NCBI RefSeq assembly: GCF_011250645.1
Contig: NZ_JAANNO010000001.1
Location: 642,658 to 706,657 of the forward strand
Origin: Motilibacter aurantiacus
GTDB taxonomy: Bacteria > Actinomycetota > Actinomycetes > Motilibacterales > Motilibacteraceae
Length of the DNA: 64,000 bases
Reading direction: 5' to 3'
A program made the position numbers and the translations under genes. Of the stretch, positions 40,429-45,665 are shown piece after piece; within the stretch, counting starts at the first letter, position 1; every line of letters begins with the position of its first letter. The notes under the pieces are model-generated. The model searched no databases. It was given only the letters and a program-made list of their open reading frames with translations, and had not been told where the DNA came from.

Positions 40429-40590
40429 CCGCCCGGCCCCCACGAGGGGCACGGCCGAGGCCCGCGCCGAGCACGTCGCCCGGCGCCTGACGGAGCGAGG
40501 GCGCCCCGAGTCCGGACAGGTGTCGGATGCAGCAGGGTGGACGCGACGGAAGTATGCGCAGAAAGCGCGCCGCTTCCCGAGAGGAACCCG

Positions 40591-42867
40591 ATGATCCGAA
40601 GAGTCGCCGCCCTCGGCGCGGCCGTGCTGGCCGCCGCGCTGCTGCCCACCGTCGCCCAGGAGACCGCCACCGCCGCCGTCGGCGAGCCCAGGGTCGTCCC
40701 GCTGCAGGTCACCGGCGACGCCGCCGACCGCTTCTCCATGGTCGTCATGGGGGACGGCTACACGGAGGCCGAGCTCCCGGAGTTCCGCGCGGACGTCGAA
40801 AAGCACCTCAACGTGCTGTGGAGCATCGAGCCCTTCCGCAGCTACCGCAACTACGTCAACGTCTACCTGGTCGAGGTCCCGTCGGCGGACTCCGGCGTCG
40901 ACTGCGACCCGGACCTCACCTCGCCGCGCAGGGACACCGCCCTGGGGATGGGCTTCTGGGGCGGCTGCAACCCGAGCAGCGTCCAGCGGCTGCTGACGGT
41001 GAACAACACCCTCGCCCGCCAGTACGCCACCCTGGCGACCCCGGACTACGACCAGATCCTCGCGATCGCCAACAGCGACACCTACGGCGGTGCGGGAGGC
41101 GCGTACGCCACGGCATCGGGCGGCAACGCACTCTCCGCGCTCATCACCCCGCACGAGCTCGGCCACTCACTCGGTGGCCTGCAGGACGAGTACACCTACT
41201 ACGGACGAGGTGTCCCGGGCGGACGCTACACCGGCGGTGAGCCCAGCTCCATCCATCACACCCTGCTGACGGAGGAGCAGATGCTGGCGCAGCAGCGCAA
41301 GTGGTGGCGCTGGCTCGGCGAGCCCAGCGAGTCCGGCGGGGTGATCGGGCGCTACGAGGGCGGCCAGTACTTCGACAGCGGCATCTGGCGCCCCAGCAAG
41401 CACTCGATGATGATCTCGCTGGGCTACTACTTCGACCAGGTCTCCCGCGAGCGCATGACGCAGCGCATCTCCCAGCGCGTCAACCTCATCGAGGACTCGA
41501 CGCCGACCTCCGCGCCCGTCGGGCGCACCGACGTGCTGTGGGTCGAGACCGCACACCCCGTCCACCACGACCTCGATGTGACGTGGTCCGTCGATGGAAC
41601 TGTGATTCCCGATACGCAGAACAGCCGTGACCTGGACCTCGAGACGCTCGCGCTCGCACCCGGCTCGCGGGTCACGGCGACGGTCGTGGACCCGACGGCC
41701 TTCGTGCGCGACCCGGCCGTGCGCGCGACGATGACCGCGACCCGGGCCTGGACCGTGGGCGAGGCGACGTCGCCCCCCGGCACGACGCCGCTGCGGTTCA
41801 CGTCGTGGACCCGGACGGAGCGGCCTCTGGGGGCGCAGGACGTCGTCCACGCGGAGACCACGCACCCGGTGGGCTCGGTCCCGACGGTCACCTGGCGGCT
41901 CGACGGCACCGTCGTCCCGAGCCCGACGAAGGCGCGCAGCTTCGACCTCGGGGCCCGGGCGATCTCCCCCGGCAGGCACACCCTCACCGCCACCGTCGGG
42001 GCAGAGACCCTCACGTGGACGGTCGACTCCGCGCCCCCGACCGTCGGCTACGAGGTCTCCGCGCCGCTCACGACCTTCACCGCAGCGGACGGCACCGCGC
42101 ACCACGTCTTCAACGAGCAGTTCACGATGGCCCTGCGGCCCACGGACGACGTGGAGGGCTACGTCGTCGGCGAGTTCCGCCGGGACGGGGACGGCTGGCA
42201 CCACTACTACGGCTGGCCGGACTCCCCGGAGGGGACGCCGTACCACTTCACCCCGCGCGGCACCAACATCGCCGGCCTGGTCTACGGGAGCCTCAGCCCG
42301 GAGGGCCTCTCCCCCCAGCCGTGGGAGGAGCGCACGCCGGGCTACGGCACGCACCTTCTGGAGTACCGCGGCATCGACGCCGCGGGGAACATCGGCGGAC
42401 AGGGCGCTTTCAACGTCTCCGTGCTCCCCTCGACCCCGGCGTGCACGTCGACGGTCACCGGGCGGGTCAGCACTCCACTGAACGTCACTTCTGGTGTCCT
42501 CTGCCTCCGGGGCGCCCGCGTCAGCGGGCCGGTGACGGTCGGCGCGGGCGCGTCGCTGATCGCCGACGGAGCCGAGATCCGCGGGCCGGTGACCGCCTCC
42601 GGAGCGGGCACGGTCCAGCTGACCGAGACGCTCGTGAGCGGCTCCGTCACGGTCGACGGCGCCACCGGGGGTGTGTCCCTGCTGGGCGCCGAGGTGCGCG
42701 GCGCGGTCACGCTCACCGGCAACAACGGCACGGCCTTCGCGCCGGTCGTGGCCGGTACGACGGTGAAGGCGCAGCTGCAGTGCGCCTCCAACGCGGTCGC
42801 CCCCGTCGACCTCGGGGTCGCCAACACCGTGAACAGCCGGCGCACGGGGCAGTGCGCCTCCCTGTAG
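40591..42867 (+). CDS. Secreted M64-family zinc metallopeptidase
   Basis: 758 aa with a signal peptide (RRVAALGAAVLAAALLP). The peptidase domain (about 30-310) has the zinc motif THELGHSLGGLQDEY-like segment PHELGHSLGGLQDEY (HExxH) and FSMVVMGDGYTEAELPEF near the start, as in IgA peptidase M64 proteins. Two tandem Ig-like repeats follow (HPVHHDLDVTWSVDGTVIPD and HPVGSVPTVTWRLDGTVVPS), then a repetitive C-terminal region (VSGPVTVGAGASLIADGAEI). GAGAGG precedes the ATG. Confidence 0.88.
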   Translation: MIRRVAALGAAVLAAALLPTVAQETATAAVGEPRVVPLQVTGDAADRFSMVVMGDGYTEAELPEFRADVEKHLNVLWSIEPFRSYRNYVNVYLVEVPSADSGVDCDPDLTSPRRDTALGMGFWGGCNPSSVQRLLTVNNTLARQYATLATPDYDQILAIANSDTYGGAGGAYATASGGNALSALITPHELGHSLGGLQDEYTYYGRGVPGGRYTGGEPSSIHHTLLTEEQMLAQQRKWWRWLGEPSESGGVIGRYEGGQYFDSGIWRPSKHSMMISLGYYFDQVSRERMTQRISQRVNLIEDSTPTSAPVGRTDVLWVETAHPVHHDLDVTWSVDGTVIPDTQNSRDLDLETLALAPGSRVTATVVDPTAFVRDPAVRATMTATRAWTVGEATSPPGTTPLRFTSWTRTERPLGAQDVVHAETTHPVGSVPTVTWRLDGTVVPSPTKARSFDLGARAISPGRHTLTATVGAETLTWTVDSAPPTVGYEVSAPLTTFTAADGTAHHVFNEQFTMALRPTDDVEGYVVGEFRRDGDGWHHYYGWPDSPEGTPYHFTPRGTNIAGLVYGSLSPEGLSPQPWEERTPGYGTHLLEYRGIDAAGNIGGQGAFNVSVLPSTPACTSTVTGRVSTPLNVTSGVLCLRGARVSGPVTVGAGASLIADGAEIRGPVTASGAGTVQLTETLVSGSVTVDGATGGVSLLGAEVRGAVTLTGNNGTAFAPVVAGTTVKAQLQCASNAVAPVDLGVANTVNSRRTGQCASL

Positions 42868-42887
42868 CTGACCGCCGCAACCGGCCC

Positions 42888-42922
42888 GGACCGGGCGTCT
42901 CAGGGCATGAGACGCCCGGTCC
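42888..42922 (+). terminator. Strong hairpin after the M64 gene
   Basis: Perfect 15-bp arms (42888-42902 and 42908-42922) around a 5-base loop, 21 bp after the M64 stop. This is an intrinsic-type terminator that separates the M64 gene from the leader peptide and M14 gene. Confidence 0.8.
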
Positions 42923-42964
42923 GCGCCGTTGACGGGGTGACAGGTCGTCCGAAAGGCTGCAGCC

Positions 42965-43042
42965 ATGTCCGGCACCTGGCTCACGTCCCGCGGTCACATC
43001 GACCTGCTGCTCGTCGCCAGCGCCGCCTGTCGGGCCTGCTGA
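42965..43042 (+). CDS. Putative cysteine-type leader peptide
   Basis: 25-codon frame MSGTWLTSRGHIDLLLVASA continuing ACRAC before TGA. GAAAGG lies 8 bases before the ATG. The core R-x-H-I-D-L-L-x-x-A-x-A-x-C matches the small actinobacterial leader peptides that usually precede sulfur-metabolism genes and are thought to sense cysteine by ribosome stalling. Here it precedes a secreted M14 peptidase gene by 160 bp. The two Cys codons at the extreme end support an attenuation role. Confidence 0.65.
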   Translation: MSGTWLTSRGHIDLLLVASAACRAC

Positions 43043-43045
43043 CGC

Positions 43046-43088
43046 GCCTGCCGCCTCGCAGGCACCGGCCCATCCCGCCGCGGGCCGG
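43046..43088 (+). promoter_or_regulatory. Hairpins between leader peptide and M14 gene
   Basis: GCCTGC/GCAGGC (43046-43051, 43058-43063) and CCGGCCC/GGGCCGG (43065-43071, 43082-43088) form two short stems directly after the leader stop. They could act as an attenuator or ribosome-access switch. A run of nine C (43108-43116) follows. Confidence 0.35.
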
Positions 43089-43202
43089 CCGCGGCCGTAC
43101 GCCCTGACCCCCCCCCGGCCGGCCGCCCTCCACTCCCACGCCCCGCTTCCGCGTCGGAGCGTTCCCGCACGTCACCCACTCCTGAAGGAGAGCTCTGCCC
43201 TC

Positions 43203-45665
43203 ATGCGTCGACCCCACCCCAGGACCGCGCTCGCCGTCCTGACGACCACGCCGCTGCTGGCGGCCCTCGTCGCGGTCCCGTCGGCCGTCCCGGCCTCGGC
43301 GACCGCGCTGCCCGAGGTGCCGAGCCGCACGATCGGCTACGACGAGATCCAGGCCTACCCGCGGGAGAACGTCCTGCCGGTGTGGCCGGTCGACGCCGAC
43401 GACGCGTCGATCGCGATCGGCGTCGTGCCGTACCACGAGATCGCGCCGCGGCTGAACGCCCTGCAGGCCGCCGGCGACCGGGTGTCGGCCGGCGTCGTCG
43501 GCAAGTCCTCCTCCGGCTACGACATCTACGCCGTCACGGTCACCTGGCCGGAGACCGCCGCCGAGGCGCGACAGCAGGAGCGGTGGAAGCGCGAGATCGA
43601 GAACGAGCCGGCCCAGGCGCAGGACGACGCGCGGCTCAAGGCCGGCTACAAGACGCCGCTCTTCGTCAACGCCAACATCCACGGCAACGAGTGGGAGGGC
43701 ACGGACGCCGCGCTGCGCGTCATCGAGGAGTTCGCCACGAGCAACGACCCCGAGACCGTCACGCTGCTCAAGCGCAACCGCCTCGTCTTCAACGTCACCG
43801 CCAACCCCGACGGACGAGTCCTCGGGACGCGCGCCAACGCGGCGGGCTACGACCTCAACCGCGACCTGACCATCGTGTCGCAGCCCGAGACCGTCGTGAT
43901 CCGCGACCTCACGATCCAGACCCAGCCGGTCATCGCGCTGGACCTGCACGGCTACGTGTCGCCGACGCTGCTGCACCCGAGCACCCCGCCGCACAACGTC
44001 AACGACGAGTACGACCTCTACATCAAGCACGCGCTGCCGAACGCCCTCGGCATCGAGGCCGGCCTCAAGGCCCTCGGCTACCCGGAGACGCAGAGCGCGC
44101 GCATCCCCTTCCGCGACGACGCGCCCGGCGTGTGGGACGACTTCCCGCCGATCTACGTCCCCTCGTTCTCCATGCTGCAGAGCAGCATCCCCTACACGAT
44201 CGAGGCCCCGCTCAACCCGCGCGGCAACCTGACCCCGGCGGAGCGGGTGCGCCGGTCGGGCATCAACACCGACGTCCACGAGGTCGCGATCCGCGAGTCG
44301 CTCGACTACATCCAGGAGCACCGCGACGAGGTCCTCTTCGACCAGGCCGAGGTGTTCCGCCGCGGCTGGGCAGGGGAGCCGCAGCGTGACCTGCCCGACG
44401 GCTACGTGCCCGGCTGGGGACCGGAGGACAACTACCACACGACGTTCCCGCGCTCTTACGTCATCCCCGTCGGCCGGGGGCAGCGCTCCGACACCGCCGC
44501 CGCCCGGCTCGTCGACCTGATCGTCGGCAGCGACGGCCGCGTCACGCAGGCCACCCAGCCCTTCGAGGCCAACGGCAGGAGCTACGAGGCCGGGTCGTAC
44601 GTCATCGACCTGCACCAGCCGAAGCGCGGCCTGGTGAACTCCCTGCTCGAGCCCGGCGCCGACATCACCGACCGCGTCGACGACCTCTACGCCGGCCCGG
44701 CCGCGTGGAGCCAGGCGCTCACCTGGGGCGCGACGGTCGACACGCTGTGGGACGAGCTGCCCGGCGTCCCGACCAGGCGCACGTACGACGGCGTGGCCAA
44801 GGGCGGCCTGCCCGCCGGCACCCCGGACCTGCGCCTCGACATCCAGGACGGCGCCGACCTGCTCGCGGTCAACTCCCTGCTCGACCAGGGTGTCGACGTC
44901 TACCGCCTCGCCGACGGCTCGGTCGTCGTCCCGCACAGCGGCACCAACCGTCGGCTCGCGGCCGTCGAGACCCGCACCAACAAGGTGACGTTCACCGCCG
45001 CCCCCGCGGGCTGGACGGGCACGAAGCTCGACGAGGTCGTCGTCGGCTACCTCGGTACCGTCGAGGAGCGCGACACGCTGCTGGACAACGGCTTCGAGGC
45101 CCGCGCCCTGACCGCGAGCAACCTGGCCACGGCCTTGGCCGCGGACATCGACGTGCTGCTCGTCAACAGCAACGTCAACATCGGCGGCCTGAGCGCGCCC
45201 AACCGCGCAGCTCTCGACGCCTTCCTCGCCCGCGGCGGCGGTGTCGTCGGGCTCGGCACCCAGGGTGCGACGTTCACGAACGCCACGTCGCTGCTCGACG
45301 TGACCGCCACCGCCGGCGCGAGCCTGGCCAGCGGTGTCGTCAACGTGGTGAACAGCAACGGCCCGGTGGCCTCCGGCGCCGCCGCGACCTCCTGGGTCTT
45401 CCAGCCGGTCTGGTACACCGACGTCCCGGCGACCGCGACGGTCGAGCAGTCGTACGCCGCCGACCCGCTGCTCTCGGGCTGGTGGGCCTCGACCAGCGCC
45501 ACCAACGGCCAGGCCGCTGCCGCCGACCAGGCCAGCATCGTCAGCGCGGTGAGCGCCGGCGGCAACGGCGTCGTGCTGATCGGCACCGACCCGACCGTCC
45601 GCCTGCACGCCAAGGGGCTGCACTCGCAGCTCGGCCGCGCCATCCTCTTCGCCGCGGAGCGCTGA
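43203..45665 (+). CDS. Secreted M14-family zinc carboxypeptidase
   Basis: 820 aa with a signal peptide ending near VPASA. The peptidase domain (about 70-400) has zinc ligands in NANIHGNEWEGTDAALRVIE (HxxE) and ALDLHGYVSPTLL, the YDLNRDL substrate segment, and catalytic Glu in PYTIEAPLNPRGN. The second half contains further beta-rich domains of unknown role. It starts after AAGGAGAG. The gene is preceded by a leader peptide and probably degrades extracellular peptides or envelope components. Confidence 0.92.
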   Translation: MRRPHPRTALAVLTTTPLLAALVAVPSAVPASATALPEVPSRTIGYDEIQAYPRENVLPVWPVDADDASIAIGVVPYHEIAPRLNALQAAGDRVSAGVVGKSSSGYDIYAVTVTWPETAAEARQQERWKREIENEPAQAQDDARLKAGYKTPLFVNANIHGNEWEGTDAALRVIEEFATSNDPETVTLLKRNRLVFNVTANPDGRVLGTRANAAGYDLNRDLTIVSQPETVVIRDLTIQTQPVIALDLHGYVSPTLLHPSTPPHNVNDEYDLYIKHALPNALGIEAGLKALGYPETQSARIPFRDDAPGVWDDFPPIYVPSFSMLQSSIPYTIEAPLNPRGNLTPAERVRRSGINTDVHEVAIRESLDYIQEHRDEVLFDQAEVFRRGWAGEPQRDLPDGYVPGWGPEDNYHTTFPRSYVIPVGRGQRSDTAAARLVDLIVGSDGRVTQATQPFEANGRSYEAGSYVIDLHQPKRGLVNSLLEPGADITDRVDDLYAGPAAWSQALTWGATVDTLWDELPGVPTRRTYDGVAKGGLPAGTPDLRLDIQDGADLLAVNSLLDQGVDVYRLADGSVVVPHSGTNRRLAAVETRTNKVTFTAAPAGWTGTKLDEVVVGYLGTVEERDTLLDNGFEARALTASNLATALAADIDVLLVNSNVNIGGLSAPNRAALDAFLARGGGVVGLGTQGATFTNATSLLDVTATAGASLASGVVNVVNSNGPVASGAAATSWVFQPVWYTDVPATATVEQSYAADPLLSGWWASTSATNGQAAAADQASIVSAVSAGGNGVVLIGTDPTVRLHAKGLHSQLGRAILFAAER

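What the first reader, a model, noticed from the sequence alone, without database searches (positions are those of the whole stretch)
42965..43202. Cysteine-type leader peptide in front of a secreted carboxypeptidase gene
A 25-codon frame with the HIDLL...A.AC core of actinobacterial cysteine leader peptides, ending in Cys-Arg-Ala-Cys, precedes an M14 peptidase and not a sulfur-assimilation gene. Two hairpins follow its stop. This would tie extracellular peptide degradation to cysteine supply: scavenging cysteine from proteins.
Basis: partly seen in the sequence, partly recalled or inferred. Interest (0 to 1): 0.6.

Follow-up and report, generated by a model that had tools for sequence, protein, structure and literature searches.

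The report
Cysteine leader before sulfur-free secreted peptidase
A tiny upstream reading frame of the kind that senses cysteine shortage sits in front of a secreted peptidase that itself contains almost no sulfur, which suggests that some soil actinobacteria digest outside proteins to get sulfur when cysteine runs out.

Summary
Window 42965-43042 (a Motilibacter species) encodes MSGTWLTSRGHIDLLLVASAACRAC, 160 nt before a secreted M14 carboxypeptidase gene. The leader recurs in register, behind a conserved promoter, before M14 orthologs in Motilibacter deserti, Micromonosporaceae and Jiangella (20 loci). Near-identical leaders precede SsuC-like permeases, and family members precede sulfurtransferase, sulfite-reductase-type, cysteine-dioxygenase and luciferase-like monooxygenase genes. 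The "two hairpins" are not conserved and the 5' region does not fold better than shuffles, so no attenuator structure is shown.

M14 orthologs without the leader (Actinoplanes) carry the palindrome CCTAYN7RTAGG, which lies in promoters of organosulfur genes; one Jiangella has both devices. The M14 subfamily is nearly free of sulfur amino acids (0.13% Cys+Met, against 1.3% in its next relatives; the window protein has 0 Cys and 1 Met in 790 residues).

Best reading: cysteine starvation stalls ribosomes at the leader's single conserved UGU codon (TGT in 62 of 62 leaders) and switches on a sulfur-sparing secreted peptidase. Sulfur-regulon membership is well supported. Cysteine response, stall mechanism and substrate are inferred. 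The leader type is known; this target is new as far as I could find.

The parts
42887..42923 (.). 16-bp perfect hairpin (loop GGGCA, no T-run) between the end of the M64 peptidase gene and the leader promoter; probably separates the two transcription units
   Evidence: Sequence read directly; not called by the terminator scan because no T-run follows
42929..42958 (+). Putative promoter: -35 TTGACG (42929-42934), 18-nt spacer, weak -10 AAGGCT (42953-42958), ending 6 nt before the leader ATG, so a leaderless transcript is likely
   Evidence: TTGACA/G with 17-18 nt spacing and a -10-like hexamer (GAAGAT in most) 6-7 nt before the leader start is kept in 20 loci; the consensus scan finds no site in the window itself
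42965..43042 (+). Leader peptide ORF, 25 codons, MSGTWLTSRGHIDLLLVASAACRAC
   Evidence: family survey
43028..43030 (+). Conserved Cys codon TGT (leader codon 22), proposed ribosome stall point
   Evidence: TGT in 20 of 20 M14 leaders and 62 of 62 leaders of the family, against 3 TGT: 112 TGC in genes called in the window
43043..43202 (+). 160-nt spacer between leader stop and M14 start, with Shine-Dalgarno GAAGGAG; start-to-start distance in relatives 188-202 nt, in the window 238 nt
   Evidence: no significant fold
43203..45665 (+). Secreted M14 carboxypeptidase, 820 aa, N-terminal signal-like sequence, zinc site H160/E163/H249 and catalytic-type E334 kept in 30 of 30 orthologs; 0 Cys and 1 Met after residue 30

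Best explanation
The 25-codon frame is a genuine member of the actinobacterial cysteine leader family and controls the M14 gene behind it in cis. When charged tRNA-Cys is plentiful the ribosome finishes the leader and M14 expression stays low; when cysteine is short the ribosome stalls at the single conserved UGU codon, probably helped by the conserved nascent peptide HIDLL.VASAA, and the downstream gene is expressed. The product is a secreted, sulfur-free zinc carboxypeptidase that trims extracellular peptides so that cysteine- or methionine-bearing fragments can be taken up. Shown: the conserved leader, the shared leader family with sulfur genes, the alternative operator in leaderless lineages, the sulfur-poor enzyme, the intact catalytic residues. 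Inferred: direction of the response, stalling, the coupling step (translational or Rho-dependent), and the substrate.
For: Leader conserved in register before M14 orthologs in Motilibacter (2 species), Micromonosporaceae (16 loci) and Jiangella (2); none before the other 8 M14 genes of the same genome. Conserved promoter and start-to-start spacing. Same leader family before mercaptopyruvate sulfurtransferase-like genes, NIR/SIR reductase, cysteine dioxygenase, luciferase-like monooxygenase, flavin reductases, YeiH-like and peptide-type ABC binding proteins; nearest leaders precede SsuC-like permeases and OmpR-type regulators. Operator CCTAYN7RTAGG before M14 in three Actinoplanes and, with the leader, in Jiangella; 25 of 26 sites intergenic against 4 of 16 for a control palindrome, next to SsuD/DszA-type monooxygenases, FMN reductases, cysteine dioxygenase, SBP56, glutamate-cysteine ligase-like. 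Sulfur depletion: leader-bearing M14 0.13% Cys+Met, next relatives 1.32%, ranges not overlapping; window protein P about 3e-6 at the window's mean composition. Precedent: cysteine-responsive uORF attenuators in M. smegmatis, cited in PMC9031893 and PMC13236596.
Against: No expression data. No conserved terminator or SD-sequestering structure in the window; simulated stalling raised SD accessibility only in part of the orthologs (p=0.18). Motilibacter leaders have Leu where nearly all others have Arg, and score below the curated cut-off. Only one conserved Cys codon, few for classical attenuation. The M14 substrate is unknown. Sulfur depletion is also seen in subfamily members without a detected leader, so it tracks the enzyme rather than the leader.
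Confidence: 0.75

Rival explanations
1. Arrest-peptide version: the conserved residues act inside the exit tunnel, and a small sulfur metabolite or low charged tRNA-Cys sets the stall, rather than simple slow decoding of one Cys codon.
For: Only one Cys is constant, while RGHIDLL.VASAA is conserved over residues far from it, with core pN/pS 0.16; the conserved Cys is always TGT.
Against: RNA-level constraint on the same bases cannot be separated from peptide constraint; several synonymous positions are also invariant. No arrest assay exists.
Confidence: 0.35
2. Translational attenuation by RNA pairing: the leader's Ala-Cys-Arg codons (CCUGUCG) pair with the M14 Shine-Dalgarno region (CGACAGG) when the leader is fully translated, and a stalled ribosome frees it.
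For: 98.4% of cells paired over 18 sequences, sliding the partner destroys the pairing; CGACAGGAG is kept in Micromonosporaceae while most of the spacer drifts.
Against: No compensatory change in this helix; one pair broken in Jiangella; the complement is absent in Motilibacter, including the window; the stall simulation is not significant overall.
Confidence: 0.25
3. The leader was carried in with an ssu-type promoter and is only a relic; M14 is expressed constitutively from the promoter.
For: The leader is nearly identical to leaders of SsuC-like permease genes; the Motilibacter copy has an unusual Leu for Arg.
Against: Purifying selection on the core and fixed spacing over three families; replacement by a sulfur-regulon operator in Actinoplanes.
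Confidence: 0.1
4. The M14 enzyme does not scavenge amino acids but processes a specific sulfur-containing or cell-wall peptide under sulfur stress.
For: M14 families include cell-wall and amidase activities; the best NCBIfam hit, far below its cut-off, is murein tripeptide amidase MpaA.
Against: No specific substrate evidence; the signal-like N-terminus and complete zinc site fit a general secreted carboxypeptidase.
Confidence: 0.25

Closest known systems
NCBIfam NF042934 'cis_reg_atten' putative leader peptides of Actinobacteria
   Same: Same core (H-[VI]-D-L ... [SA]-x-x-C near the stop), same length class, upstream position; M14 leaders of relatives score above the curated cut-off
   Different: The window copy is below the cut-off (19.7 against 27 bits), probably because of Leu in place of the usual Arg; the target is a secreted peptidase
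Cysteine-responsive leaderless uORF attenuators of mycobacteria (Canestrari et al. 2020, cited in PMC9094748, PMC9031893 and PMC13236596; Ms4527A family NF042936)
   Same: Short, apparently leaderless Cys-containing uORF ahead of a sulfur-related gene, including cysA2-type sulfurtransferases (PMC4633059)
   Different: Those have runs of Cys codons; here a single conserved Cys codon, always TGT, and a conserved peptide; the target class is not among those named in the papers read
Cysteine leader peptides of Seliverstov et al. 2005 (PMC1262725)
   Same: Leader ORF before cys operons in Mycobacterium, Propionibacterium, Bifidobacterium, without obvious terminators, Rho suggested
   Different: Targets there are cysteine biosynthesis operons; leaders have runs of Cys codons near the stop
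Sulfur-sparing response (for example sulfur-poor MetE in Rhodococcus, PMC8557817)
   Same: Proteins made in sulfur starvation avoid Cys and Met
   Different: Here a secreted peptidase of over 800 residues with almost none, under a cysteine leader

Membership tests
Actinobacterial cysteine leader peptides (NF042934) | Core sequence match to the family model above its curated cut-off | tested here: not met
   Window copy 19.7 bits against 27; orthologous M14 leaders 27.7-33.5 bits, above it
Actinobacterial cysteine leader peptides (NF042934) | Short ORF with a Cys codon close to the stop, upstream on the same strand as the controlled gene | tested here: met
   25 codons, TGT at codon 22, 160 nt before M14; spacing kept in relatives
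Actinobacterial cysteine leader peptides (NF042934) | Purifying selection on the encoded peptide | tested here: met
   pN/pS 0.16 in codons 9-22 over the M14 leaders
Actinobacterial cysteine leader peptides (NF042934) | Target in sulfur or cysteine metabolism | tested here: inconclusive
   M14 is not a known sulfur enzyme; sulfur-poor composition and the alternative operator suggest regulon membership
Mycobacterial polycysteine leaderless attenuators | Run of consecutive Cys codons | tested here: not met
   One conserved Cys codon; the second Cys of the window copy is absent in M. deserti
Mycobacterial polycysteine leaderless attenuators | Leaderless transcript | tested here: inconclusive
   Conserved promoter ends 6-7 nt before the start codon; no transcript data
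Mycobacterial polycysteine leaderless attenuators | Downstream expression responds to cysteine | not testable with these tools
   Needs reporter assays
Classical terminator/antiterminator attenuator | Intrinsic terminator with competing hairpin after the leader | tested here: not met
   No terminator found, folding z=0.15
M14 metallocarboxypeptidase | HxxE + H zinc ligands and catalytic Glu | tested here: met
   PF00246 E=5.7e-19; H160, E163, H249, E334 in 30 of 30 orthologs

The most novel reading that the evidence does not exclude
A cysteine-sensing leader whose single obligatory UGU codon and nascent peptide together form a cysteine-dependent ribosome arrest switch, controlling a purpose-built sulfur-free exo-peptidase; in some lineages the same gene has exchanged this RNA switch for a protein-bound sulfur-starvation operator, revealing an actinobacterial protein-scavenging branch of the sulfur regulon.
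Probability: 0.4. Interest if true: 0.75.

Novelty: new member of a known kind. Interest (0 to 1): 0.6.

Why it matters
Bacterial sulfur starvation is usually described through sulfate, sulfonates and sulfate esters. This locus points to secreted protein digestion as a regulated sulfur source, made by an enzyme that itself costs almost no sulfur. It gives a testable case of one gene under either an RNA leader or a protein operator in different lineages, and the invariant TGT codon of the leader family is a clue to how one cysteine codon can be sensed.

Tried and rejected
Intrinsic terminator or structured attenuator in the window: none. Rfam: no match in the window. The second Cys as sensor: not conserved. 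Leader in front of the other M14 genes of the genome: none. Leader in the wider M14 relatives at about 48% identity: none by pattern search. The CCTAYN7RTAGG site in the window itself: absent even with 2 mismatches. Whole-genome count of that site: not above its reversed-pattern control, so only its position, not its number, is evidence. Stall simulation: inconclusive. Canestrari et al. 2020 could not be read in the held library, so details of that work rest on papers that cite it.

Full report
What is there. Window 42965-43042 (+) holds a 25-codon ATG frame, MSGTWLTSRGHIDLLLVASAACRAC, ending 160 nt before an 820-aa ORF (43203-45665) that matches Peptidase_M14 at E=5.7e-19. The frame matches NCBIfam NF042934 'putative leader peptide' at E=4.8e-4 but below the curated cut-off. 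A perfect 16-bp hairpin (42887-42923) separates it from the upstream M64 peptidase gene, and a TTGACG box stands at 42929-42934. The genome is a Motilibacter: the M14 protein is 93% identical to that of M. deserti.

More than chance. In M. deserti the frame is kept in front of the M14 start. Of 80 named M14 loci, 18 in Micromonospora and relatives, Plantactinospora and Jiangella carry a leader in the same register, for example VRSVHLTKRGHIDLLRVASAACRRSI. In all 20 leaders the start codon, the length to the Cys codon and the residues LT.RGHIDL...ASAAC are fixed (position 8 varies); core codons 9-22 give pN/pS 0.16. TTGACA/G with 17-18 nt spacing and a -10-like hexamer ends 6-7 nt before the leader start, which suggests leaderless transcripts. 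Start-to-start distances in relatives are 188-202 nt; in the window 238 nt. The other eight M14 genes of the genome have no such frame, nor do the 48%-identity relatives. In the M14 tree the leader-bearing loci are spread over several branches, with Asanoa, Actinoplanes and Solirubrobacter branches lacking it.

What the leader family does elsewhere. In seven related genomes the family model finds leaders before 3-mercaptopyruvate sulfurtransferase-like genes, a nitrite/sulfite reductase, cysteine dioxygenase, flavin reductases, a luciferase-like monooxygenase, YeiH-like and SDF-type transporters and peptide-type ABC binding proteins. A search of 247 genomes of the class finds near-identical leaders (LTTRGHIDLLRVASAACRRGC) before ABC permeases that look like SsuC, and before OmpR-type DNA-binding proteins; the SsuC assignment is by eye and by PF00528. 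The M14 leader therefore belongs to a sulfur-linked family and is closest to the sulfonate-uptake type.

One conserved codon. The conserved Cys is TGT in 20 of 20 M14 leaders and in 62 of 62 leaders of all targets, although genes called in the window use 3 TGT against 112 TGC. Other Cys codons in the same leaders are often TGC, as in the window (TGT CGG GCC TGC). The family is related by descent, so 62 is not 62 independent events, but the targets are varied.

A second, independent link to sulfur. In Actinoplanes, M14 orthologs lack the leader but carry the exact palindrome CCTAYN7RTAGG 50-130 bp upstream. Two Asanoa species have CTATC-N5-GATAG between promoter and start, a weaker match. In Jiangella endophytica the strict site lies about 100 bp before the leader, and J. 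aurantiaca has a one-mismatch site at the same place. Sites in the Jiangella, Actinoplanes and Asanoa genomes lie next to luciferase-like (SsuD/DszA-type) monooxygenases, an acyl-CoA-dehydrogenase-like flavoenzyme, FMN and flavin reductases, cysteine dioxygenase, SBP56, a YeiH-like exporter, a glutamate-cysteine ligase-like protein and sulfonate-type binding proteins. Of 26 sites, 25 are intergenic by a crude gene caller against 4 of 16 for a control palindrome. The count per genome is not above its control, and a few sites have no evident sulfur gene, so the evidence is positional. The protein that binds this site was not identified.

A sulfur-free enzyme. After residue 30 the leader-bearing M14 proteins average 0.13% Cys+Met and same-subfamily members without a leader 0.17%, against 1.32% in the 48% relatives, ranges not overlapping (Mann-Whitney p=3.7e-10; the sequences are related, so this overstates independence). 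The window protein has 0 Cys and 1 Met in 790 residues; at the window's mean of 1.94% this has probability about 3e-6. Two operator-linked flavoenzymes of Jiangella have none at all. Sparing of sulfur amino acids in proteins made during sulfur starvation is an established idea (PMC8557817 describes sulfur-poor MetE). The zinc ligands H160, E163, H249 and E334 are kept in 30 of 30 orthologs, so the enzyme is probably active.

How it may work. Cysteine-containing leaderless uORFs that attenuate downstream genes in a cysteine-dependent way are reported for M. smegmatis (Canestrari et al. 2020, cited in PMC9031893 and PMC13236596; earlier proposals in PMC4633059 and PMC1262725). By analogy, M14 should be low with ample cysteine and rise when ribosomes stall at the UGU codon. 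The coupling step is open. The window has no terminator and no unusual folding. In Micromonosporaceae the Ala-Cys-Arg codons CCUGUCG are complementary to the Shine-Dalgarno CGACAGG, and a hairpin with two compensating pairs lies between them, but Motilibacter lacks the complement and a stall simulation was not significant overall (p=0.18). Rho-dependent control, suggested for mycobacterial leaders in PMC1262725, cannot be tested here.

Weak points. There is no expression or enzyme data. Both Motilibacter leaders have Leu where the family has Arg. The named SsuC and organosulfur functions rest on family models and sequence look, not tests. Cysteine scavenging is the simplest reading of a secreted peptidase in a sulfur regulon, but a narrower substrate is possible.

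Verdict. The leader is real and of a known kind; its target, a secreted and nearly sulfur-free carboxypeptidase, was not found described in the papers searched, a search limited to the held open library.

Noticed in passing
window 43028-43030; loci L001-L005, L023-L048, L108, L111-L133, L150, L180-L205: The conserved Cys of the leader family is TGT in 62 of 62 leaders although TGC is strongly preferred; usually in the context [CG]TGTC. Cause unknown (rare-codon sensing or RNA constraint).
   Followed up: partly
L134-L159 (Jiangella, Actinoplanes, Asanoa genomes): Palindrome CCTAYN7RTAGG in promoters of organosulfur genes, often together with a Cys leader; its binding protein was not identified.
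   Followed up: partly
L037, L038, L042 against L023-L048: The same M14 gene is under a Cys leader in some lineages and under the palindrome in others; Jiangella (L152) has both.
   Followed up: yes
L043, L045, L049, roughly the last 150 bp before the M14 start: Solirubrobacter M14 orthologs have a short hairpin followed by TTTCTC right after the putative start site (AGGGCG..CGCCCTTTCTC), possibly another leader type.
   Followed up: no
L150, 1734 and 2293: In Jiangella two divergent identical leaders (VELTIRRVVDYMRVASTRCR) each follow a CCTAYN7RTAGG site; one adjoining flavoenzyme gene encodes no Cys or Met.
   Followed up: no
window 40537-42867: M64-family secreted peptidase directly upstream of the leader, no leader of its own, ordinary Cys and Met content.
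   Followed up: partly
L003, L122, L126: Cys leaders precede a sodium:dicarboxylate-type symporter in Motilibacter and Jiangella, which may be a cystine or sulfur-compound importer.
   Followed up: no
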